Part shown: piece after piece, positions 2 through 8,107 of the stretch
Numbering within the stretch: position 1 is the first letter of the stretch
How the letters are laid out: each line of letters starts with the position of its first letter
Source of the DNA: Anaerolineales bacterium
Lineage (GTDB): Bacteria > Chloroflexota > Anaerolineae > Promineifilales > Promineifilaceae
Direction: 5' to 3'
Length of the DNA: 8,107 nucleotides
NCBI GenBank assembly: GCA_020432595.1
Contig: JAGQGA010000226.1
Coordinates: forward strand, 1-8,107
Notes under the pieces: generated by a model
What the model was told of the DNA's origin: nothing
What the model saw: only the letters and a program-made list of their open reading frames with translations
The model's database searches: none
Made by a program: the position numbers and the translations under genes

Positions 2-733
2 GGCACCACAACCCTCACCTCCGCCCACTTCCCCAGCCAAATCCGCCCCCAAATCCCGCTTCCCATCCAGTTCTCCGGCTTCGGCCCCGCCAACCTCACC
101 TTCAATCTCCAATCTCCCAATCTCCCAATCTCCCAATCTCCCAATCCCCAATCCCCAATCCCCACCCCCTTCACCACCGCCACCCCTGTTTCGACAGGGC
201 TGGATAACGGCCCTTATACCCTCACCGTGCAGGGAGATGGAGCCATTTGTGGCTGGCTGGCGCGGCCAACCAACGGCTGCCTGCTGGGCAAAGTGGAAAT
301 CAGCGGCGTGGCTTTGCCGCCTGATGCCACCAACTTCGATGACAAAATCGCCCTGCTTGGTGTGGATCTGGGCCAAACCGAACTGGTTGCCGGAACCGAA
401 CTACCCGTCACGCTCACCTGGCAAAGCCTGGCTCCACTTGACCACGACTACACCGTTTTTATCCAGATCTTGAACGACCAAGACCATATCGTGGGGCAAG
501 TAGACGCTTGGCCGCTGCAAGGCACGCTGCCCACCAGCCAGTGGCAGCCCGGCCAAACCATTACTGACCCCCATCTGGTGCGGCTGGCCGATGACTTGCC
601 GCCCGGCAATTATCGGCTGCAAGTGGGCTGGTATCTGTTGGCAACCTTGCAACGGCTGCCCGTACTGGACAGCAACGCCACGCCCATGGATGATAAGTTT
701 CTGGTGACGCGGTTAGCGGTATCTAAACAATAA
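2..733 (+). CDS. C-terminal part of a probable extracytoplasmic or membrane glycosyltransferase-type protein (5' end outside window)
   Basis: The frame is open from base 2 to the TAA at 731-733, so this is the end of a longer gene. A GTG at 227 could be read as a start, but the open frame continues upstream without a stop, so truncation by the window edge is more likely. About 243 residues are visible. The first part is Pro/Ser/Asn/Gln-rich and includes a linker coded by a short tandem repeat. The second part, after about base 300, is a beta-rich domain with the pattern 'LPVTLTWQSLAPLDHDYTVF', a QVDAWP segment, a PTSQWQPGQ segment and 'LPPGNYRLQVGWY'. Domains of this pattern occur at the C-terminus of large membrane glycosyltransferases (PMT/ArnT-like) in Chloroflexota; that link is from memory and is inference. 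No catalytic part is in the window. No membrane segment is visible in the part present. Confidence 0.6.
   Translation, partial: GTTTLTSAHFPSQIRPQIPLPIQFSGFGPANLTFNLQSPNLPISQSPNPQSPIPTPFTTATPVSTGLDNGPYTLTVQGDGAICGWLARPTNGCLLGKVEISGVALPPDATNFDDKIALLGVDLGQTELVAGTELPVTLTWQSLAPLDHDYTVFIQILNDQDHIVGQVDAWPLQGTLPTSQWQPGQTITDPHLVRLADDLPPGNYRLQVGWYLLATLQRLPVLDSNATPMDDKFLVTRLAVSKQ
104..163 (+). repeat. Tandem AATCTCC(C)/AATCCCC array inside a coding frame
   Basis: Eight head-to-tail units fill 60 bases: one AATCTCC, four AATCTCCC and three AATCCCC. In the open frame they encode a low-complexity linker rich in Asn, Pro, Ser and Gln. Units are 7 or 8 bp, so gain or loss of one unit would shift the frame of everything downstream. 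The total of 60 bp keeps the present frame. The 14-base word AATCTCCAATCTCC at its left end recurs exactly at 770-783 in the intergenic region after this gene. Confidence 0.9.
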
Positions 734-828: not shown

Positions 829-1605
829 ATGCACTTTCACGAAAAAGACGACTTCCCCTATCTCCAATTTGACTCATTAACCATTCCCCGACTTCAGCAC
901 GCCATCTTCACCCGCCAAGGCGGCATCAGCCCCGCCCCCTTCGACAGCCTCAACCTCAGCGTCTCGGTGGCTGACAGCAAGGACAATGTGTATGCCAACC
1001 GCCGCCGGGCGTATGGGTTGTTTGGGCGGGACACAGAAACGGCCGTTCACGCCCACCTTGTCCACGGTAACCAGGTCAGCGTCGTTACCCGCGCCGACGA
1101 TGGCACCTGGCCGCTGGGTGATGCCATCGTCACCAACGAACCCGGCTGCGCCCTGACCATGAACTTTGCCGACTGCGGCTCCGTTTTTCTCTACGACCCC
1201 ATTAACCACGCCATTGGCCTCGGCCACGCCGGGTGGAAAGGAGCCATTTGTAACCTGCCAGGGGCGATGGTGAGGGCGATGACCGCCGCATACGGCAGCC
1301 GCCCCGCCGACCTGCTGGCCGCGCTTGGCCCCTGCATCGGCGTTTGCTGTTATGAAGTAGGCGAACCCGTCATTAGCGAAGTCCACGCTGCCTTTGCCGA
1401 ACCAGAAACGCTACTGCACAATGTAGGTGGCGAACGACCTCATTTTGATTTAGCCGAGGCCAACCGCCGCAACCTACAAAACGCCGGAGTCGCCAAAATC
1501 GAAATGCCCAACCTTTGCACCGCCTGCCGCACCGACCTCTTTTTTTCGCACCGCGCTGAAAAAGGCAAAACCGGTCGTTTTGGCTCCATGTTTATTCTTG
1601 TCTGA
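829..1605 (+). CDS. pgeF: Peptidoglycan editing factor PgeF (YfiH/DUF152 'laccase-domain' family)
   Basis: This 258-residue protein is a full-length member of the DUF152/YfiH family, usually about 230-280 residues. Family landmarks in order are HLVHGNQV (76-83), GDAIVTNEPG (97-106), FADCGSVFLYD (113-123), GLGHAGWKGAI (130-140), ALGPCIGVCCYEVG (165-178) and FFSHRAEKGKTGR (238-250). His79, Cys116 and His133 match the conserved His-Cys-His metal site. Characterised relatives remove wrongly incorporated residues such as L-Ser from peptidoglycan precursors in the cytoplasm; others act on purine nucleosides, like LACC1. Which activity applies here is inferred from the family. The ATG at 829 is supported by GAGG at 819-822 with 6 bases of spacing. 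The gene stands 95 bases after the previous gene and 90 before the next, with no cell-division neighbour in view. Codons for residues 70-73 contain one AACGGCCGTT palindrome (1038-1047). Confidence 0.93.
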   Translation: MHFHEKDDFPYLQFDSLTIPRLQHAIFTRQGGISPAPFDSLNLSVSVADSKDNVYANRRRAYGLFGRDTETAVHAHLVHGNQVSVVTRADDGTWPLGDAIVTNEPGCALTMNFADCGSVFLYDPINHAIGLGHAGWKGAICNLPGAMVRAMTAAYGSRPADLLAALGPCIGVCCYEVGEPVISEVHAAFAEPETLLHNVGGERPHFDLAEANRRNLQNAGVAKIEMPNLCTACRTDLFFSHRAEKGKTGRFGSMFILV

Positions 1606-1686
1606 GTAACACCCCATCATAAGGCAGACAGTAAGATTATTGCCCTACAATATGGCCTGTTTGTGGAACTATCTCTATCAGGAAGT

Positions 1687-1692
1687 GAGGGA
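1687..1692 (+). promoter_or_regulatory. Ribosome binding site fixing the start of the LTD gene
   Basis: GAGGGA lies just before the ATG at 1696; its GAGG core (1687-1690) is 5 bases from that codon. The frame is also open upstream to a GTG at 1663, but that would add 11 polar residues in front of a clean signal peptide and has no such site. The ATG at 1696 is therefore preferred. Confidence 0.75.
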
Positions 1693-1695
1693 CAT

Positions 1696-4512
1696 ATGTT
1701 AACCCGTCGAATACTTGTTCTTGTTCTGCTGTTGCTGTTTGCCAGCAGCACGCTTAGCCTTGTTTTTGCCCAATCCTCCGCTGCCCCCAATGATGTCACC
1801 AATCTACGGATCAACGAATTTATGGCGTTGAACCAAAATAATCTGGAAGACCCAGACGAACCGGGGACCCACCCGGACTGGATCGAAATTTACAATGGGG
1901 GAGGAACGGCCGTTAATCTGCAAAACCTCTACCTCAGCGACGACCCCACCAACCTGACCAAATCCCCCATTACCGCCACCATCATGGTACCCGCCAATGA
2001 TTTCGTGCTTTTCTATGCCGATAGCCAGCCCGAACAAGGGCCACACCACACCAACTTTGGTCTAAGTGGTAACGGCGAAAATATATTGCTGGTCGGCAAC
2101 GACGGCAGCACCATCATTGACAGCTACACCTTTGGCCCGCAAACGGCCGATATTGCCGAAGGCCGCTTCCCCGACGGAGCCGACAACTGGCAGCCCATGA
2201 CCGCCCCCAGCCCCGGCAGCAGCAACGCCATCGCCCCCATCATCGAAGACGTGGTGCAAACCCCGGCCAACCCTAGCAGCAGCGACAGCGTCACCGTCAA
2301 CGCCCGCATCACCGATGACGGCACGGTGGAATTTGCCACGCTTTACTACAGTGCTACCCAAACCAGCTTTACGGCCGTTCCCATGTCGGCCCTGGCAAAC
2401 AACCGCTACGAAGGCACCATCCCCGCTTTCCCCACCAACACCACCGTTGACTATTACATCGAAGCTGGGGACGACATGGGGCAAAGCAGCGTCCACCCCA
2501 GCGATGGCTACAGCCGCTACGTGGTTGGCTTTGTCCCGCCCACGCTCTACATCAACGAATTTGTTGCCCTCAACACCACGCTGCCCGACCCCGATGAGCC
2601 AGGGACTTTCCCCGACTGGATTGAGATTTATAACCCGGGAGGAACGGCCGTTGATCTCGATGGCTACTACCTCACCGACAACCTCACCAACCTCGTCAAA
2701 TCCCCCATCAATGGTTCGGTGATCGTACCGGCAGGTGGCTTTGTCCTGTTTTACGCCGACAGCCAGCCCGAACAAGGTGCCAACCACACTAACTTTGCCC
2801 TTAGCTCTACTAACGGCGAAGACGTAGCCCTGGTTGGCCCCGATGGCAGCACCATCATTGACAGCCACACCTTTGGCCCACAAACGGCCGATATTTCCGA
2901 AGGCCGCTCCCCCGATGGTGCTGACAACTGGATATTCTTCAACCCGCCCACCCCCGGCAGCAGCAACACCCAGCCGCCCCACATCAGCAATACCAGCCAC
3001 GCTCCACAGCAGCCTAGTTCCGCCGACAGCGTGACCGTCACCACCACCGTCACCGATGACGGCAGCGTGACCGTTACGTTGTTCACTGTCATCAACGGTA
3101 ACAGCGGCAGCGCAGCGATGTCGCCGCTGGGCAACAACCAATTCAGTGCCTCCATCCCCGCCCAAACGGATGGAACGATTGTTCAATATTACGTTCGCGC
3201 CGTTGACAACGACAATCAGACGAGCAATGACCCGCCGGGGGCACCGACCGACACCTACACCTACATTGTCGGTTACACCGCCCCGCCGCTGTTTATCAAC
3301 GAATTCATGGCGAGCAACAGCAGTACGCTGACCGACCCGGTGGAGCCAACAGAGTTCCCAGACTGGATTGAGATTTATAATGCGGGAGGAACGGCCGTTA
3401 ATCTCAACGGCTACTACTTCAGCGACGACCCCGCAAACCTCACCAAATCCCCCATCACGCAAACGCTCACCGTTCCGGCCAATGGCTTCCTGCTCGTTTA
3501 CGCCGACAGCGACCCGTTTCAGGGGCCTGAACACACCAACTTTGGCCTGAGCACCAACGGCGAAAGCGTCCTGCTGGTGGCTCCCGACGGCACAACGATT
3601 GTGGACAGCTACACCTTTGGCCCCCAAACGGCCGATGTCTCCGAAGGCCGTCTGCCCGATGGTGGTAACGATTGGGTCTTCTTCAACGTCCCAACCCCCG
3701 GCAGCAGCAACGCCTTCACGCCCCCTAACATTAGCAGCACCAGCTTTGCCCCCACCCAGCCGGGCGACAGCGACCCCGTCACCGTTACCAGCCAAATCAG
3801 CGATGATGGGCAGGTGGTAGCGGCCACGCTGTTCTACCGCACCGGCGGCACCTTCTCGGCACTGCCGATGACGGCGCAGGGAAACGGCAGCTACAGCGGT
3901 ACCATTCCCGCCTTTGCCGCCGGAACGACGGTGGAATTTTATGTGACGGCGCAGGACAATGACGGGCTGATTAGCAGCGACCCGCCCACCGCCCCCAACG
4001 CCACCTACAGCTACACCGTCGGCACAACGCTGCCCACGCTCATCATCAACGAGTTTATGGCCGACAACGGCAGCACGCTGGAAGACCCCGACGAGTCGGG
4101 TGAGTTCCCGGACTGGATTGAGATTTATAATGCAGGAGAAACGGCCGTTGATCTCAATGGCTTCTACCTCAGCGACGACCTAGCCAGCCCGACAAAATCC
4201 CCGATCACGCAAACACTCACCATTCCGGCCGGCGGCTATCTGCTCATCTACGCCGACGGCGACCCGTTCCAGGGTGCCGCTCACGCCGACTTCAAGCTGG
4301 GTGCTGGCGGCGAATCGGTGCTGCTGGTCTACAGCGACGGCACGACCGTCCTCGACAGCCGCACCTTTGGCGCACAAACCACCGACGTATCCGAAGGGCG
4401 CTGCCCCAATGTCACGGGCAATTGGCAAACCATGTCCGCCCCCACTCCCGGCGCGGCCAATGTGTGTACGGTTAACTACACCGTTTACCTGCCGCTAATC
4501 GGCAAGAAATAA
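1696..4512 (+). CDS. Secreted protein with four tandem lamin-tail (LTD) domains
   Basis: The protein has 938 residues from the ATG at 1696. Residues 1-25 are a signal peptide: MLTRR, a Leu/Val-rich core, then LVFA with predicted cleavage before Gln26, so it is exported. Four LTD domains begin near residues 37, 284, 532 and 782. Each starts with INEF, continues with a D-P-x-E-P-type acidic loop and FPDWIEIYN, then a GTAV(N/D)L-x-x-x-YLSDD strand, KSPI, a YADS/YADG segment, and ends with an EGR-PDG / PTPGSSN turn. Three spacers of about 105 residues separate them. These look like Ig/Fn3-type beta domains, with DSVTV-x-x-x-(I/V)-x-DDG and a YY(I/V)xAxD strand. The tail is YTVYLPLIGKK. LTDs occur in bacterial extracellular and surface proteins, often beside enzymatic domains; none is present here, so an adhesive or structural role is inference. 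The ligand is unknown. The gene ends 34 bases before a convergent helicase gene. Confidence 0.88.
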   Translation: MLTRRILVLVLLLLFASSTLSLVFAQSSAAPNDVTNLRINEFMALNQNNLEDPDEPGTHPDWIEIYNGGGTAVNLQNLYLSDDPTNLTKSPITATIMVPANDFVLFYADSQPEQGPHHTNFGLSGNGENILLVGNDGSTIIDSYTFGPQTADIAEGRFPDGADNWQPMTAPSPGSSNAIAPIIEDVVQTPANPSSSDSVTVNARITDDGTVEFATLYYSATQTSFTAVPMSALANNRYEGTIPAFPTNTTVDYYIEAGDDMGQSSVHPSDGYSRYVVGFVPPTLYINEFVALNTTLPDPDEPGTFPDWIEIYNPGGTAVDLDGYYLTDNLTNLVKSPINGSVIVPAGGFVLFYADSQPEQGANHTNFALSSTNGEDVALVGPDGSTIIDSHTFGPQTADISEGRSPDGADNWIFFNPPTPGSSNTQPPHISNTSHAPQQPSSADSVTVTTTVTDDGSVTVTLFTVINGNSGSAAMSPLGNNQFSASIPAQTDGTIVQYYVRAVDNDNQTSNDPPGAPTDTYTYIVGYTAPPLFINEFMASNSSTLTDPVEPTEFPDWIEIYNAGGTAVNLNGYYFSDDPANLTKSPITQTLTVPANGFLLVYADSDPFQGPEHTNFGLSTNGESVLLVAPDGTTIVDSYTFGPQTADVSEGRLPDGGNDWVFFNVPTPGSSNAFTPPNISSTSFAPTQPGDSDPVTVTSQISDDGQVVAATLFYRTGGTFSALPMTAQGNGSYSGTIPAFAAGTTVEFYVTAQDNDGLISSDPPTAPNATYSYTVGTTLPTLIINEFMADNGSTLEDPDESGEFPDWIEIYNAGETAVDLNGFYLSDDLASPTKSPITQTLTIPAGGYLLIYADGDPFQGAAHADFKLGAGGESVLLVYSDGTTVLDSRTFGAQTTDVSEGRCPNVTGNWQTMSAPTPGAANVCTVNYTVYLPLIGKK
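1804..4464 (+). repeat. Four tandem gene-internal repeats of about 745 bp (LTD plus spacer)
   Basis: The INEF codons begin at 1810, 2551, 3295 and 4045, giving steps of 741, 744 and 750 bases. DNA similarity is high, not just protein similarity: the 20-mer GACTGGATTGAGATTTATAA is identical at 2614, 3361 and 4111, and diverged at 1876. In every copy AACGGCCGTT lies exactly 29 bases after the start of that word (1905, 2643, 3390, 4140). AACGGCCGAT occurs in copies 1-3 (2142, 2883, 3627) and is lost in copy 4. Copies 2-4 look most alike at this site, suggesting expansion from a single LTD-spacer unit. Confidence 0.85.
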
Positions 4513-4522
4513 ATGGGGCATT

Positions 4523-4550
4523 GTAGAGACGTAAGATTTTACGTCTCTAC
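4523..4550. repeat. Perfect palindromic element between convergent genes; probable shared terminator
   Basis: GTAGAGACGTAA (4523-4534) and TTACGTCTCTAC (4539-4550) form a perfect 12-bp stem with a GATT loop. It sits between the convergent LTD gene (stop at 4510-4512) and the helicase gene. The helicase stop codon (CTA on the + strand, 4547-4549) lies inside the right arm. Palindromes of the GTAGAGACG...CGTCTCTAC type are common dispersed intergenic repeats in cyanobacteria and some other phyla; this is from memory. There is no long T-tract on either side, so terminator function is likely but not proven. It could be a REP/MITE-like insertion. Confidence 0.75.
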
Positions 4551-7087
4551 CCCCCACCCAACAACATCCGCACCAACCGCCGCGTCACCGCCTTCGTGTC
4601 CGGCCCAATGTCACCGGGCGGGCCGACGCAGGCGGGGCAACCGGAGCGACATTGGCAGTCGGCAATCAATTCCAGCGCCGCTTGCAGCAGCTCGTCGTGA
4701 AGTTCAAACAGCCGTTGGCTAAACCCCACCCCCGCAGCAATGCGCTCATAAATCACCAGCGTTGGGGCTTGGGTCAGCGGGCTGCGGCTTTCGGCCATCA
4801 CCTGAATATCCTCTGGATCACACATCAAATAGAGCGGGGCTAGATTGCCCAGCACATAGGCCAAGCCGCCGAGGGCGGAGCGGGTTTGCTGCCCGGCTTC
4901 GGCGCGGCGGTGGCAGGCAGGGCAGAGTGTCACCAAATTATCAAGCTGGTTGGCTTCCAGATAATGCTCGTTTTCCCCTTTGACGTAGCCGTATTCCCGA
5001 AACGGCCGTAAATGATGCACATGAAGCGTAATGTCGTCGCCGCTGGCACTGCAGGTGCGGCAACTGTGGCCGTCGCGCCGCAATGCCTTTTGCCGCTGCT
5101 GCTGCCAGTTGGGGCCATAATCATTGGGACGCAGCAAAATCCCCTGCTGGTAAAGCTGCTCGGTGAGGGCTTCGCTAAAAATGAGCCAGTAGCCGGACGT
5201 TTCCAGCGTCATCTCTGGCAAATCAATTTCGCCAAACCCAAGCGTTTCGTGGCTGTGCCGTTTGATTTTGCGGTAGCTGGTGGCCTGAGTGACAAGGGTC
5301 ACATCGCCATAGGCACGCTGCACTCCCTCGCCGCTGCTTTCGGCTTCGGGCTGTAGGGCGCGGATGCGGGTGCCGACGTTGGCGCGAGTGTAGTAATCTA
5401 CGTCAACGGCGCGAACCTGGGCTAAACGGCCGTTCCAATCCAACCTCTCCACCAAAAACGACCGCGCCTGGTGCATATAAATCGCCCCCTCATGCAGCAT
5501 AAACGGCGCACTCTCCAAATCCACCTCCCCGATTATTTCCGGCGGTGTTTGGTCAACGGCGTGGATAAGAACCGTCTCGCCGCCGCTGGTACGGAGCGAA
5601 ACCACATTAGCTGGGGCATTTTCCCCCAGCCAGTGGTACTGCTGCCGCGTTTGGTGCAAGGCACCTTCCTCGGTGAGCAAATCGAGCAGGGTACCAAGTG
5701 GTTGATCGCCAGCAAACGGCTCATCGAAGCGCAGCGGCAGTTCATAGGCGGCGCATAGCAAGTGCTTAACCATGATTCGCAGGTTGTCGGGGTTGGTGAG
5801 GGCGTGTTCGGGCGAACGGCCGAAAAGATAGCGCGGGTGGTTACAGATGTATTGATCGAGCGGACTGTTGTTGGCAACCATCAGCGTCACCGACTGGGCG
5901 TTGCGCCGCCCCGCCCTTCCCGCCTGCTGCCAGGTGGAGGCAATGGAGCCGGGGTAGCCGGTGAGAACGGCAACATCAAGCTGTCCGATGTCTATCCCCA
6001 ATTCGAGGGCATTAGTAGCCACCACCCCCCGCACGAAGCCCTGGCGCAATCCTTGCTCGATTTCACGCCGTTCCAGCGGCAGGTAGCCACCGCGATAGCC
6101 AGCAACGGCCGTTTCTTCCCCCTGCTGGTAACGCAATTCATCTTGCAGATAGGTGAGCAGCAGTTCCACCGTTTGCCGAGCGCGGGCAAAGACAATAGTT
6201 TGAATGTCGTTGCTGAGGAACGTCAGGGCGGCATCTTTGGCCGCCAGCACCGAACTGCCGCGCAGCCCCAGCTCTGGGTCAATGATGGGCGGGTTGTAGA
6301 GGATGAACTGCTTTTCGCCACGAGGCGCACCGTTTTGGCTTTCGTCAATGAGGGTAAACGGCCGTTCCACCAGCCGTTCCGCATGTTCCTTGGGGTTGGC
6401 TATGGTGGCCGAGCAGCAAATGAACTGCGGGTCGCTGCCGTAAAAGCGGCACAGGCGGCGCAGACGGCGCAGGACGTTGGCAACATGGCTGCCAAACACG
6501 CCGCGATAGGTGTGGATTTCGTCCAGCATCACAAATTCGAGATTTTGGAACAGGCCGCGCCAACTGGTGTGGTAGGGCAAAATGCCAGCGTGAAGCATAT
6601 CGGGGTTGGTGAGCAGAATGCCGCCATCGCGCCGGACTTTGCTGCGCTGGCTGCGGGGGGTGTCACCATCGTAGCTGTGAATGGGGATGGGTAAACGGCC
6701 GTTGTTGACCAGTGCTGTCGTCTCCGCTAGTTGGTCGTGGGTCAGGGCTTTGGTGGGGAACAGGTAGAGGGCGCGGGCGCGGGGCTGCCACAACAGCCGT
6801 TGCAGCACGGGAATGTTGTAACACAGCGATTTGCCGGAGGCGGTGGCGGTGGCGATGATGACGTTGTGGTGGTCGGAAACGGCCGTTAATGCCGCCAACT
6901 GGTGCGTATAGAGTTCTGTGATGCCTTGTTGGGCAAGGGCGGCGGCAATACGGCCGTCAACAAAATCTGGAATGGCAGAGGACACTGCCCCACGCGACGG
7001 AAGACGTTCCCAGGCCACGACCTGCTCCATAAACGGTCGGTTGCGGCGTAGTTGCAATAAAAGGTCGGTTAAACCATGGTTTATCAT
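4547..7087 (-). CDS. YprA/MrfA-type DEAD/DEAH-box helicase with embedded HNH domain
   Basis: This 846-residue superfamily 2 helicase has YTHQ (60-63), Walker A ATASGKS (81-87), PTKALTHDQ (111-119), TNPDML (160-165), DEIH (189-192), SAT (226-228), VATNALELGIDIG (356-368) and QQAGRAGRR (387-395). The DEIHTYRGVFGSHVANVLRRL stretch and the C-terminal part, including LHEGAIYMHQ (531-540), PLYLMCDPEDI and Cys4 (C811, C813, C817, C820), match the YprA/MrfA family. In Bacillus MrfA is a 3'-5' helicase for mitomycin-damage repair with the exonuclease MrfB; no mrfB is in the window. Between about residues 661 and 726 an HNH motif is inserted. The ATG at 7085-7087 begins the longest reading; no clear Shine-Dalgarno precedes it, so the start is less certain than the rest. 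The gene diverges from the 91-residue gene and converges with the LTD gene. Its last codons (LLGGG, stop) run into the palindrome at 4523-4550. Role in DNA repair is inferred from family. Confidence 0.9.
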   Translation of the reverse strand: MINHGLTDLLLQLRRNRPFMEQVVAWERLPSRGAVSSAIPDFVDGRIAAALAQQGITELYTHQLAALTAVSDHHNVIIATATASGKSLCYNIPVLQRLLWQPRARALYLFPTKALTHDQLAETTALVNNGRLPIPIHSYDGDTPRSQRSKVRRDGGILLTNPDMLHAGILPYHTSWRGLFQNLEFVMLDEIHTYRGVFGSHVANVLRRLRRLCRFYGSDPQFICCSATIANPKEHAERLVERPFTLIDESQNGAPRGEKQFILYNPPIIDPELGLRGSSVLAAKDAALTFLSNDIQTIVFARARQTVELLLTYLQDELRYQQGEETAVAGYRGGYLPLERREIEQGLRQGFVRGVVATNALELGIDIGQLDVAVLTGYPGSIASTWQQAGRAGRRNAQSVTLMVANNSPLDQYICNHPRYLFGRSPEHALTNPDNLRIMVKHLLCAAYELPLRFDEPFAGDQPLGTLLDLLTEEGALHQTRQQYHWLGENAPANVVSLRTSGGETVLIHAVDQTPPEIIGEVDLESAPFMLHEGAIYMHQARSFLVERLDWNGRLAQVRAVDVDYYTRANVGTRIRALQPEAESSGEGVQRAYGDVTLVTQATSYRKIKRHSHETLGFGEIDLPEMTLETSGYWLIFSEALTEQLYQQGILLRPNDYGPNWQQQRQKALRRDGHSCRTCSASGDDITLHVHHLRPFREYGYVKGENEHYLEANQLDNLVTLCPACHRRAEAGQQTRSALGGLAYVLGNLAPLYLMCDPEDIQVMAESRSPLTQAPTLVIYERIAAGVGFSQRLFELHDELLQAALELIADCQCRSGCPACVGPPGDIGPDTKAVTRRLVRMLLGGG
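4910..5107 (-). other. HNH nuclease motif embedded in the helicase (residues about 661-726)
   Basis: The segment reads as a complete HNH module. It has an RRDGHSCRTC start with the first zinc pair C676/C679, then LHVHHLRPF (688-696) with the HH catalytic pair H691/H692, then DNLVTLCPACH (716-726) with N717, the second pair C722/C725, and H726. It lies between the helicase's own C-terminal beta region and GLAYVLGNLAPLYLMCDP, so it is an insertion in the C-terminal domain, not an end fusion. The reading frame is uninterrupted on both sides. Confidence 0.85.
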
Positions 7088-7195
7088 TGAAAATTCGATA
7101 TGGTAAAAAGTTATAAAATCGTTATAATAATTGCTAATTAAGTTACAGTTTAGCCTTAATGCATTTTACACCATTTTCATGATTGAGGATGACGC
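7088..7195. promoter_or_regulatory. AT-rich divergent intergenic region between helicase and small gene
   Basis: This 108-base segment is far more AT-rich than the flanking genes, with many TTATAA-type steps between 7105 and 7145. It must carry promoters for both divergent genes. On the + strand there is a perfect TATAAT at 7123-7128, but no convincing -35 box at the usual spacing (ATGGTA at 7100-7105). On the - strand several TATAAC/TTTATA words are present and none stands out. The ribosome binding site for the small gene is GAGG at 7185-7188. Confidence 0.5.
7123..7128 (+). promoter_or_regulatory. Candidate -10 element for the 91-residue gene
   Basis: TATAAT matches the sigma-70 -10 consensus exactly and lies 67 bases before the ATG at 7196. 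The -35 region is weak and the surroundings are AT-rich, so a chance match is possible. Confidence 0.35.
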
Positions 7196-7471
7196 ATGAA
7201 AGAGAACACAGCAACCCTCCAAGTTTATAGTCCACAGCAGGCCAACATTGTTGCCAGTGTCGTCTTAAATGGCTACAACATTCGCGGGGACGGTCCTTTG
7301 GGTAAACAAGGCTCCATGCGTAGTTTTACCATTGTTTCTGGTGATTTGTGGGAGCAGTGGGACGTTCAGATGCCGCTGCAACTTCAAGATGACACGGGGA
7401 AGTCATCCAATATTCGCATTGCTGCGCTGCCTGTGGAAGATGATGGTTATGGGTTGATTGAGTTTTTGTAA
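7196..7471 (+). CDS. Small protein of unknown function next to the origin
   Basis: The product is a 91-residue soluble protein that I do not recognise. It has no signal peptide, membrane segment or Cys cluster; its sequence alternates polar and hydrophobic residues, suggesting a small beta-rich fold, with an acidic end (VEDDGYGLIEFL). The ATG at 7196 is preceded by GAGG at 7185-7188 with 7 bases of spacing, and the gene is closed by a strong hairpin terminator at 7500-7528. These signals support a real, single-gene unit. Its TAA stop (7469-7471) overlaps the first base of an AACGGCCGTT palindrome. It lies between a repair-type helicase and the replication origin; a role in replication would be guesswork. 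Confidence 0.72.
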   Translation: MKENTATLQVYSPQQANIVASVVLNGYNIRGDGPLGKQGSMRSFTIVSGDLWEQWDVQMPLQLQDDTGKSSNIRIAALPVEDDGYGLIEFL

Positions 7472-7499
7472 ACGGCCGTTTTCTTATCTGACTTCTATG

Positions 7500-7528
7500 A
7501 AAGACCGCTACACTAGCGGTCTTTTTTT
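7500..7528 (+). terminator. Intrinsic terminator of the 91-residue gene
   Basis: AAAGACCGCTA (7500-7510) pairs perfectly with TAGCGGTCTTT (7514-7524) around a CAC loop, and a run of seven T covers 7522-7528. The 11-bp stem plus T-tract is a classic Rho-independent terminator, 28 bases after the stop codon. On the opposite strand the stem is followed by only TTT, so it acts mainly in the + direction. It shields the origin from + strand transcription. Confidence 0.9.
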
Positions 7529-7572
7529 ATCCAACGAGTTATGCCCGTATGTTGATATAGGGTCTTAATAAG

Positions 7573-7588
7573 TAGTAGTAGATAGTAG
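7573..7588 (+). promoter_or_regulatory. DnaA-trio-like element (basal unwinding system)
   Basis: TAG is repeated three times (7573-7581), then after one A twice more (7583-7588). A GGGC block (7589-7592) separates it from the tandem words TGTGGAAT-TGTGGAAAA (7593-7609), the second a good DnaA box. The order AT-rich stretch, TAG repeats, G/C block, paired DnaA boxes is the arrangement described for the bacterial basal origin unwinding system, where DnaA loads from boxes onto the trio strand. Function here is inferred from this arrangement. Confidence 0.7.
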
Positions 7589-7600
7589 GGGCTGTGGAAT

Positions 7601-7609
7601 TGTGGAAAA
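7601..7609 (-). promoter_or_regulatory. DnaA box TTTTCCACA
   Basis: TGTGGAAAA on the + strand is TTTTCCACA on the - strand, one difference from TTATCCACA and within TTWTNCACA. It directly follows a weaker copy, TGTGGAATT at 7593-7601, and lies next to the TAG repeats. Confidence 0.75.
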
Positions 7610-7693
7610 CTGTTTTGCTACCCATATACGCTACTGCTTTCCCCCTTTGCCAAAAACACCCCCCAGGTATACGGTTGTTGCTTATTCGGCTCT

Positions 7694-7702
7694 TGTGGAT
7701 AA
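7694..7702 (-). promoter_or_regulatory. DnaA box, perfect consensus
   Basis: TGTGGATAA on the + strand is the exact DnaA box TTATCCACA on the - strand. Confidence 0.85.
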
Positions 7703-7843
7703 CAATGGGGAGAAACTTTTAGTTTGGTTTGGGTCAGATGTAAGACGCTTTACATGCTGCTTGCATATCTGGTAGATGGTTCCTCTGCCGCCCCCCATAT
7801 GTGGGATTGTTGAGGTTGAACGTGGAATTTTTCTATGTCAACC

Positions 7844-7852
7844 TTTTCCACA
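7844..7852 (+). promoter_or_regulatory. DnaA box TTTTCCACA
   Basis: One difference from the consensus. It is the first of three same-direction boxes spaced 20 and 21 bases start to start, about two helical turns, which would place bound DnaA on one face of the DNA. Confidence 0.8.
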
Positions 7853-7863
7853 AATAGCAGGGT

Positions 7864-7872
7864 TTTTCCACA
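7864..7872 (+). promoter_or_regulatory. DnaA box TTTTCCACA
   Basis: Second of three phased boxes, identical to the first one. Confidence 0.8.
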
Positions 7873-7884
7873 ACTTTAGGAGAG

Positions 7885-7893
7885 TTATCCACA
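7885..7893 (+). promoter_or_regulatory. DnaA box, perfect consensus
   Basis: TTATCCACA exactly, third of the phased boxes and nearest to dnaA. Confidence 0.88.
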
Positions 7894-7911
7894 GATTTGA
7901 GAGGGGGGATC

Positions 7912-7947
7912 AAAAAAACGGCCGTTTCTGGCAGAAAACGGCCGTTT
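7912..7947 (-). terminator. Intrinsic terminator of dnaA built from two AACGGCCGTT palindromes
   Basis: Read on the - strand, AAACGGCCGTTT (7947-7936) pairs with the second AAACGGCCGTTT (7927-7916). CT/AG extends the stem past a single bulged T to a GCC loop, giving about 14 bp. The T-tract continues to 7912, seven T in all from 7918 to 7912. It begins about 48 bases after the dnaA stop codon. Each arm is also a palindrome by itself, so alternative small hairpins are possible. Confidence 0.8.
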
Positions 7948-7995: not shown

Positions 7996-8107
7996 CTAGG
8001 AATCGTACAGATTTGCCTTTATTTCCAACAGTTCACGTCTGGTAATAGCATCCGTTTCCATCAGCGAAGCAATCTTGTCTACACCATAGAGAATGGTTGT
8101 ATGGTCG
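7996..8107 (-). CDS. dnaA: Chromosomal replication initiator DnaA, C-terminal end (5' part outside window)
   Basis: The last 36 codons and a TAG stop (7996-7998) are present; the gene enters from the right edge. The first full codons encode DHTTILYGVDKIASLM, matching the DHTT signature of DnaA domain IV, the helix-turn-helix domain that reads the DnaA box. The tail (TRRELLEIKANLYDS) fits the final helix. DnaA binds boxes at oriC, forms an ATP-dependent filament and opens the duplex; boxes that it would bind lie directly downstream. Domains I-III cannot be seen. Transcription runs toward the origin and is stopped by the hairpin at 7912-7947. Confidence 0.92.
   Translation of the reverse strand, partial: DHTTILYGVDKIASLMETDAITRRELLEIKANLYDS

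What the first reader, a model, noticed from the sequence alone, without database searches (positions are those of the whole stretch)
1038..7946. A highly iterated 10-bp palindrome, AACGGCCGTT, pervades the window
Thirteen exact copies of a 10-bp palindrome and 16 of its 8-bp core occur in 8.1 kb; at about 60% GC some 0.01 copies of the 10-mer would be expected. This resembles HIP1 (GCGATCGC) in cyanobacteria, but the word is different and I know of no description of it for this lineage. Possible roles are a methyltransferase target, a DNA-uptake or repair recognition word, a nucleoid-protein site, or a by-product of mutational or repair bias.
Basis: partly seen in the sequence, partly recalled or inferred. 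Interest (0 to 1): 0.82.

Follow-up and report, generated by a model that had tools for sequence, protein, structure and literature searches.

The report
Chloroflexota genomes saturated by a palindrome
A short mirror-image DNA word fills almost every place where the protein code allows it in one group of Chloroflexota bacteria and in some phage-like sequences, probably because it is the target of a DNA-methylating enzyme, which gives a case outside cyanobacteria in which to test why such words take over genomes.

Summary
In detail: 13 AACGGCCGTT and 16 ACGGCCGT in 8,107 bases. The window's own genome is not held. In relatives found through its helicase the enrichment is genome-wide: 29 of 56 genomes of the order carry 2,887-15,176 ACGGCCGT; none of 397 sampled Chloroflexota outside the order exceeds 471. 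The word is one dialect of a family with core CGGCCG: A..T flanks in most, AA..TT in the window and two relatives, T..A in two, G..C in one, any flank in six; one relative uses TGCCGGCA; others show no clear word. ACGGCCGT fills 13 of 13 codon-permitted places in the window and 685 of 765 in relative G012 (10% expected), is equally dense in coding and noncoding DNA, and is nearly independent of neighbouring words; word-rich viral contigs show the same. The best candidate recogniser is an undescribed ~660-residue DNA methyltransferase ('HipM', my name): in 29 of 31 flanked-word genomes, beside a NotI-family endonuclease gene in three. Against it: it is also in 14 of 25 genomes without a flanked word, and the six flank-free genomes lack it. 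Methylation is inferred, not shown. Verdict: a new variant of the highly iterated palindromes known from cyanobacteria.

The parts
1038..1047 (.). AACGGCCGTT copy 1, in the laccase-domain ORF (Thr-Ala-Val frame)
1905..1914 (.). AACGGCCGTT copy 2, lamin-tail ORF
2643..2652 (.). AACGGCCGTT copy 3, lamin-tail ORF
3390..3399 (.). AACGGCCGTT copy 4, lamin-tail ORF
4140..4149 (.). AACGGCCGTT copy 5, lamin-tail ORF
5425..5434 (.). AACGGCCGTT copy 6, helicase ORF
6104..6113 (.). AACGGCCGTT copy 7, helicase ORF
6357..6366 (.). AACGGCCGTT copy 8, helicase ORF
6694..6703 (.). AACGGCCGTT copy 9, helicase ORF
6878..6887 (.). AACGGCCGTT copy 10, helicase ORF
7471..7480 (.). AACGGCCGTT copy 11, first base is the last base of the stop codon of the small ORF, rest intergenic
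7917..7926 (.). AACGGCCGTT copy 12, intergenic, next to dnaA 3' end
7937..7946 (.). AACGGCCGTT copy 13, intergenic, next to dnaA 3' end
2371..2378 (.). ACGGCCGT core copy without the AA..TT extension
5002..5009 (.). ACGGCCGT core copy without the AA..TT extension
6950..6957 (.). ACGGCCGT core copy without the AA..TT extension
829..1605 (+). carrier gene: laccase-domain protein, PF02578
   Evidence: E 1.8e-71
1663..4512 (+). carrier gene: protein with four lamin-tail domains, PF00932
   Evidence: E 4.8e-58, 4 stretches
4547..7087 (-). carrier gene: DEAD/DEAH helicase with MrfA Zn-binding (PF09369) and HNH domains; used to find relatives
7196..7471 (+). small ORF, no family found

Best explanation
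AACGGCCGTT is the window's dialect of a lineage-specific highly iterated palindrome (HIP) with core CGGCCG. Shown here by sequence: genome-wide enrichment in relatives, flank switching between lineages, near-saturation of permitted places, density blind to coding, strong retention. Inferred: the 8-bp form is the target of HipM, a solitary amino-methyltransferase of NotI/EagI-type modification systems; because the GCGGCCGC dialect has no adenine, the methylated base would be a cytosine (N4). Further inferred: once methylated, each word is individually favoured (a fixation, repair or retention bias acting site by site), so words that arise by mutation are kept until almost every permitted place is filled; when the enzyme's flank reading changes or is lost, the dialect changes or decays. 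My odds: HIP class 0.95; HipM is the recogniser of the flanked dialects 0.6; a density-independent per-site bias rather than counted-site selection 0.6.
For: Genome-wide counts: CGGCCG 16,381 vs backwards control 4,914 in G001; 13,814 vs 51 in G006; 29 of 56 genomes with 2,887-15,176 ACGGCCGT; backwards control 20-459 in those 29. Confined to the order in the sample. Sharp word: in 400 kb of G012, 766 A..T against at most 41 of any other flank pair; 10.7 expected after masking. Dialects. Saturation: (window 13/13; G012 685/765; G006 GCGGCCGC 90/121; G028 TCGGCCGA 50/68; G015 CGGCCG 157/191). Coding 1.92/kb, noncoding 1.88/kb. Retention: 21 alignment positions hold 129 helicase words in 23 sequences; where amino acids agree the word is kept in 727 of 766 pairs (117 expected) even below 75% protein identity; nucleotide check. 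HipM; in 29 of 31 flanked-word genomes (tally); NotI-family gene directly upstream on the same strand in G006, G021, G026. On the helicase tree no flanked-word genome lacks HipM (25 with both, 8 with neither, 8 HipM only).
Against: HipM is not sufficient: 14 of 25 genomes of the order without a flanked word have it, and G193 and G422 outside the order have it without any clear word. It is not detected in G043 and G044, which do have the A..T word (15/16 and 40/49 places), though G043 gave no helicase and G044 only a contig-edge piece. The six genomes with flank-free CGGCCG (G015, G048-G052) have no HipM by protein or profile search, so the core can be enriched without it. Independent pairs on the tree: 5, of which 2-4 agree and 0 oppose, sign test median p 0.25. 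In G001 a weak NotI-family match (8.1e-6) lies near a different methyltransferase, not HipM. Distant HipM relatives on two plasmids follow a gene that is not NotI-family. Three Pfam methyltransferase families were searched, not all. No methylation data.
Confidence: 0.55

Rival explanations
1. The word is selected as a binding site of an unidentified DNA-binding protein (nucleoid organiser, Chi-like recombination mark). Each copy has a small benefit; methylation is incidental.
For: Strong retention and the sharp 8-bp word fit uniform selection; the six HipM-less genomes still enrich CGGCCG.
Against: Occupancy hardly depends on a word nearby (frame 0: 32/35 within 60 bp, 46/46 beyond 600 bp) and coding equals noncoding density; flank switching needs the protein to change specificity repeatedly; no candidate protein was found or searched for.
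Confidence: 0.2
2. Elhai's model for cyanobacteria: methylated GC within the word directs mismatch repair, so words accumulate up to about one per kb and then saturate.
For: Same class of word, similar density (one search gives 300-2,700 per Mb for HIP1; G012 sample 1,915 per Mb); one-base variants concentrate at the outer position (TCGGCCGT 3.8 times expected) as reported for HIP1.
Against: The model predicts no advantage for extra words near an existing one; occupancy is 0.91, 0.88 and 0.64 within 60 bp in the three frames and spacing is close to geometric with CV 1.12. There is a mild deficit of spacings under 50 bp (40 seen, 71 expected) and a mild rise of frame-0 occupancy with distance, which lean its way. 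No MutH-like gene was searched for.
Confidence: 0.12
3. A DNA-uptake word with lineage dialects, enriched by biased transformation.
For: Core-plus-variable-flank dialects resemble (recalled) DUS dialects; word also dense in phage-like contigs and low-GC methyltransferase loci.
Against: Perfect palindrome; one-base variants total 301 against 238 expected in 400 kb while the word is 72-fold, sharper than recalled uptake words. Competence genes were not searched.
Confidence: 0.05
4. The copies are an artefact of repeated coding domains, codon bias or base composition.
For: Four copies sit in homologous places of the four lamin-tail repeats.
Against: Nine copies are elsewhere, three of them outside ORFs; codon usage predicts 1.8 of the 13; genome-wide counts in relatives.
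Confidence: 0.01

Closest known systems
HIP1 (GCGATCGC) and alternate HIPs of cyanobacteria (Elhai 2015, PMC4390886)
   Same: GC-rich palindromic 8-mer at about 1-2 per kb; core of form CG-NN-CG with preferred flanks; sporadic switching between relatives; outer-position variants; presence of a candidate methyltransferase. HIP1 fills 26/42 and 24/39 permitted places in two cyanobacterial plasmid stretches by the same measure.
   Different: Other phylum, other core (CGGCCG), at least four flank dialects on one core, another methyltransferase family (NotI-linked amino-methyltransferase instead of the GATC and CGATCG enzymes), and occupancy independent of spacing.
NotI / EagI restriction-modification (PF12183)
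   Same: Recognition core CGGCCG (recalled) equals the HIP core, and GCGGCCGC, the G006 dialect, is the NotI site (recalled); NotI-family gene beside HipM in three genomes.
   Different: In most genomes HipM is solitary and its presumed sites are enriched thousands-fold instead of avoided.
DUF1156 / PglXI-type large amino-methyltransferases
   Same: Weak profile matches: PF06634 at the N-terminus (E 0.0029), NCBIfam NF042963 (2.7e-21), PADLOC PglXI (3e-23).
   Different: HipM is about 660 residues, far below the NCBIfam cut-off (75 of 1000 bits), solitary, with no PDB relative beyond methyltransferase-fold fragments.

Membership tests
Highly iterated palindrome (HIP) | GC-rich palindrome of about 8 bp, strongly overrepresented genome-wide | tested here: met
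   In relatives; window's own genome not held
Highly iterated palindrome (HIP) | Density of the order of 300-2,700 per Mb | tested here: met
   G012 14,867 in 7.7 Mb; window 16 in 8.1 kb (range)
Highly iterated palindrome (HIP) | Single-base deviations prefer first and last positions | tested here: met
   outer variants 1.2-3.8 times expected, core variants 0.36-1.46; reported for HIP1
Highly iterated palindrome (HIP) | Replaced by other palindromes in some relatives | tested here: met
   TCGGCCGA, GCGGCCGC, CGGCCG, TGCCGGCA
Highly iterated palindrome (HIP) | Methyltransferase specific for the word or its core present | tested here: inconclusive
   HipM in 29 of 31 flanked-word genomes, but also in 14 of 25 others; none in the six flank-free genomes
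Highly iterated palindrome (HIP) | Word is methylated in the cell | not testable with these tools
   No kinetic or bisulfite data held
NotI/EagI-type modification methyltransferase (HipM) | Gene adjacent to a NotI-family endonuclease | tested here: met
   Met in 3 genomes (G006, G021, G026); in the other genomes with HipM no NotI-family match over cut-off except a weak one in G001 away from HipM
NotI/EagI-type modification methyltransferase (HipM) | Amino-methyltransferase motifs (SAM-binding motif, DPPY) | tested here: met
   DPMMGGGTT-like and TDPPY(F/Y)D present in every row of the 37-row alignment that covers them; PF01555 E 1.3e-14
NotI/EagI-type modification methyltransferase (HipM) | Methylates CGGCCG | not testable with these tools
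   Needs expression or long-read kinetics
DNA uptake sequence | Non-palindromic, oriented word (recalled) | tested here: not met
   Perfect palindrome
DNA uptake sequence | Competence machinery | not tested
   No search made

The most novel reading that the evidence does not exclude
A sequence-specific drive: methylation (or binding) of a palindrome makes each copy self-perpetuating, site by site and regardless of coding, neighbours or function, until nearly every place the proteins allow is filled, proteins are reshaped to hold more copies, phages carry it too, and the dialect follows the enzyme's flank specificity. Support: saturation, coding-blind density, near density-independence, 3-4 fold more permitted peptides in word-bearing genomes, dialect switching.
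Probability: 0.3. Interest if true: 0.9.

Novelty: new variant of a known kind. Interest (0 to 1): 0.74.

Why it matters
Why cyanobacteria are full of HIP1 is an old open question, hard to attack inside one phylum where word and methyltransferases are inherited together. This order offers many close relatives with different dialects on one core, natural losses, and a named candidate enzyme with NotI-linked variants. The occupancy measure (fraction of codon-permitted places filled) turns 'overrepresented' into a number that separates models: per-site drive, counted-site selection, spacing-limited repair. If the enzyme is confirmed it also yields a family of CGGCCG-type methyltransferases with different flank readings, and the word could serve as a host tag for metagenomic phages.

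Tried and rejected
m5C methyltransferases (PF00145) as general recogniser: found in 26 of 56 genomes and missing from many word-rich ones; the one shared by G015, G035, G049, G050 looks Dcm-like (recalled signature).

Dam-like PF02086: in 45 of 56 genomes, in word-bearing and word-less ones alike, and CGGCCG holds no adenine.

NotI-family endonuclease as general recogniser: over its cut-off in 4 of 56 genomes.

Strand asymmetry: AAACGGCCG 13 against CGGCCGTTT 4 in the window, but 3/8, 8/7, 6/7, 5/2 in L001-L004; not pursued.

Gain rates from close relatives: only 12 and 21 exposed one-base variants and 0 gains, too few.

HipM fold search: one PDB match at E 0.001 or better, TM 0.14 on the query, a methyltransferase-fold fragment.

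Viral HipM: 29 loci, best identity over long matches about 28-31%, no close relative.

A script picked wrong ORFs for many methyltransferase loci and its clusters were not used. A first translation of the dnaA end was out of frame; one search has the right frame.

Full report
OBSERVATION. The window holds 13 AACGGCCGTT (0.01 expected in shuffles), 16 ACGGCCGT and 21 CGGCCG at 56.7% GC. Carrier genes: a laccase-domain protein, a protein with four lamin-tail domains, a DEAD/DEAH helicase with MrfA-type zinc-binding and HNH domains, a small ORF without a family, and the 3' end of dnaA on the minus strand (recognised by eye, no Pfam match for the 36 residues). Ten copies of the 10-mer lie in ORFs, three outside or at an ORF end.

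WHOSE GENOME. No whole genome is held for the window. A scan of GTDB contigs with the helicase gave seven relatives, L001-L007, titled Ardenticatenaceae, Anaerolineae or Chloroflexi MAGs; helicase relatives in the protein search carry the names Promineifilaceae and Ardenticatenaceae, nearest 74% identical apart from the window's own cluster. All genome-wide statements below concern relatives, handles G001-G056 (the order of G001) and a sample of 400 genomes of the phylum.

GENOME-WIDE. CGGCCG against its backwards control GCCGGC: 16,381/4,914 (G001), 3,499/445 (G002), 17,663/5,805 (G003), 10,038/3,138 (G004), 13,814/51 (G006), but 4,911/6,531 (G005) and 3,159/8,497 (G007). ACGGCCGT: 29 of 56 genomes of the order have 2,887-15,176 copies, with controls of 20-459 in those 29. 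In 400 genomes of the phylum, of which three belong to the order set, none of the other 397 exceeds 471.

DIALECTS. In 400 kb of G012 the flank pair A..T occurs 766 times, any other at most 41; with words masked 10.7 are expected. Samples of other genomes (3 to 63 kb each) show AA..TT in G002 (46 of 58) and G016 (14 of 16) like the window; TCGGCCGA in G014 (67) and G028 (59); GCGGCCGC in G006 (91); CGGCCG with any flank in G015, G048, G049, G050, G051, G052; TGCCGGCA in G025 (54 in 56 kb; 3,665 genome-wide as the control column); none clear in G005, G007, G020. G035-G042 have 220-646 ACGGCCGT and, with G046-G047 and G054-G056, CGGCCG modestly raised (occupancy 0.22-0.40 against 0.08-0.25 expected). 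On a helicase tree of 42 rows the A..T genomes form one group that also contains G007 and the G035-G040 rows; eight changes of type at least. Rows left out for lack of a full helicase: 15 of 56 genomes.

SATURATION. I counted places where the amino-acid sequence permits a word and asked how many carry it. G012: 685 of 765 for ACGGCCGT (72.6 expected from codon usage), against 7/304, 30/377 and 8/340 for TCGGCCGA, GCGGCCGC and TGCCGGCA. Window: 13 of 13 (1.8). G006: GCGGCCGC 90/121 (8.4). G028: TCGGCCGA 50/68 (3.6). G025: TGCCGGCA 49/88 (3.2). G015: CGGCCG 157/191 (22.0). G018: 15/24 (1.2). G005 and G007: CGGCCG 39/201 (27.9) and 33/258 (30.4), ACGGCCGT 4/31 and 0/23. By frame in G012: 363/379 (Thr-Ala-Val), 212/235, 93/134. 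Places that permit ACGGCCGT number 6.4 per 1,000 codons in G012 and 5.7 in the window but 1.4-3.0 in genomes with another word or none (G005, G006, G007, G020, G025, G028, G035, G037-41), so proteins seem reshaped too. ORFs were called mechanically.

BLINDNESS. Density is 1.92/kb in ORFs and 1.88/kb outside. Spacing in G012 is near geometric (746 intervals, mean 498, CV 1.12) with a deficit below 50 bp (40 seen, 71 expected). Occupancy of permitted places within 60 bp of another word is 32/35, 23/26 and 14/22 in the three frames; beyond 600 bp 46/46, 21/24 and 5/8. So there is at most a weak effect of neighbours.

RETENTION. In a codon alignment of 23 A..T helicases (22 genomes and the window), 129 words sit at 21 positions, two of them shared by 21 of 23. 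Where the amino acids agree the word is kept in 727/766, 250/257, 187/202 and 26/27 ordered pairs in identity bins below 75, 75-85, 85-95 and above 95%, with 117, 47, 69 and 15 expected; pairs are not independent, and pairs with changed amino acids were set aside (1271, 287, 27, 1). At nucleotide level, over two 20-kb neighbourhoods, G012 words are kept in G008 21/33 and in G010 30/33, composition-matched 8-mers 57/399 and 156/405; with G008 as outgroup words changed 17/306 times and matched 8-mers 241/946. Rough inference: in near pairs loss is suppressed about 15-fold at synonymous sites while enrichment is 48-72 fold, so gains are probably favoured too; a scaled fixation bias near 4 would give both. 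This is arithmetic on small, dependent samples.

WHAT READS IT. m5C methyltransferases were found in 26 of 56 genomes, PF01555 at E 1e-3 in 52, Dam-like PF02086 in 45. Weak split PF01555 matches in MTase-poor, word-rich genomes proved to be one protein of about 660 residues, here HipM, with a DPMMGGGTT motif near residue 70 and TDPPYFDS near 470, an order typical (recalled) of alpha-type amino-methyltransferases with the target-recognition part between. It is found at E below 1e-80 in 43 of 56 genomes: 29 of 31 with a flanked word (missing G043, G044) and 14 of 25 without (Fisher p 0.0013, not corrected for kinship). Missing from G005, G007, G025, G045, G053 and all six flank-free genomes even with a profile. 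In G006, G021 and G026 a NotI-family endonuclease ORF lies directly upstream on the same strand (E 5.5e-11, 1.3e-52, 9.1e-55); G006 owns the GCGGCCGC dialect, the NotI site (recalled). The HipM tree (37 of the 43; six fragments left out) puts the two T..A owners together (long branches, flagged by the program), and G006 with the NotI-linked G021/G026 and with G027; G021/G026/G027 and G024/G033/G034 group differently from the helicase tree, so HipM moves between A..T hosts yet the hosts keep A..T. All seven G035-clade rows share HKWWARR to HKWWGRR with catalytic motifs intact, which could mark a changed reading. G012 also has a 957-residue distant relative, so HipM is not its only methyltransferase-like gene besides the Dam-like one. 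HipM has at least 1,617 relatives in the protein database, the named ones called hypothetical protein, DNA methyltransferase or (putative) DNA methylase (best 120 seen). AlphaFold model: pLDDT 84.2, pTM 0.88.

AGAINST. Presence of HipM does not suffice (14 genomes of the order; G193 and G422 outside it) and the flank-free group manages without it. On the tree only five independent contrasts exist and the sign test is not significant. The recogniser of the bare core is unknown.

PHAGES. Two words within 5-35 bp were found in 25 stretches of IMG/VR contigs, a search that favours word-rich DNA. Seven stretches of at least 5.5 kb with 1.7-3.7 words per kb were analysed (L281, L282, L289, L299, L301, L303, L305); four carry head or tail genes (portal and head protease in L289 and L305, major head in L303, tape measure in L299). 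Their pooled occupancy is 142/172 (14.5 expected). Whether these are free phages or prophages is not known.

LITERATURE. Elhai 2015 (PMC4390886; abstract and sections 4 part 1, 12, 13, 14 part 1, 18 part 1) describes HIP1, alternate HIPs, linked methyltransferases and the repair model. By the same occupancy measure HIP1 fills 26/42 and 24/39 permitted places in two 50-kb cyanobacterial plasmid stretches. Passages of PMC6329791 list a lake Chloroflexi genome (BD1, 2.89 Mb) with 77,932 GCWGC motif sequences, 93.3% m4C-methylated, a possible parallel. PMC12772301 and PMC4081073: passages only. The string AACGGCCGTT occurs in four papers by listing, none about this; full-text searches for palindromes in Chloroflexi and for CGGCCG methylation found no description; the library holds open-licence papers only. 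Xu, Lawrence and Durand 2018 on selection on HIP1 is recalled, not seen.

VERDICT. A new variant of the HIP kind: same phenomenon by five tested features, new phylum, core, dialect structure and candidate enzyme. The mechanism of enrichment stays open, but the measures here narrow it to a per-site, coding-blind bias.

Noticed in passing
window 7996-8107 (minus) and about 7560-7900: 3' end of dnaA (DHTTILYGVDKIASLMETDAITRRELLEIKANLYDS) and an intergenic stretch with several TTATCCACA / TGTGGAAAA-like boxes, by eye a likely replication origin.
   Followed up: partly
window 7916-7946: Two words 10 bp apart in the intergenic stretch before dnaA; together they could form a hairpin.
   Followed up: no
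window 101-160 and 742-790; G012 sample: Non-palindromic iterated CAATCTCC (6 copies in the window; 67 in 400 kb of G012, 6 times expected) and related GGATTACG-type words; a second repeated element, apparently intergenic.
   Followed up: no
G012 sample L076-L095; G006; G015: Other palindromes nearly absent: GGGCCC 3 in 400 kb of G012 (o/e 0.01), GCCGGC 51 in 8.0 Mb of G006 and 0 in 28 kb of G015, as under restriction or exclusion.
   Followed up: no
G025: HIP switched to TGCCGGCA (3,665 genome-wide) with CGGCCG almost gone (3 in 25 kb); a different methyltransferase is expected there.
   Followed up: partly
G015, G048-G052: Core CGGCCG enriched with any flank, occupancy 0.51-0.82, without HipM; recogniser unknown.
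   Followed up: partly
G005, G007, G020, G025, G028 and most word-bearing genomes: A Dam-like PF02086 methyltransferase of about 300 residues, usually one strong copy, in 45 of 56 genomes.
   Followed up: no
window, whole: Strand bias of the third A: AAACGGCCG 13 against CGGCCGTTT 4, not repeated in L001-L004.
   Followed up: partly
G193, G422: HipM relatives at about 50% identity outside the order with no clear iterated word in about 14,000-16,000 codons each.
   Followed up: partly
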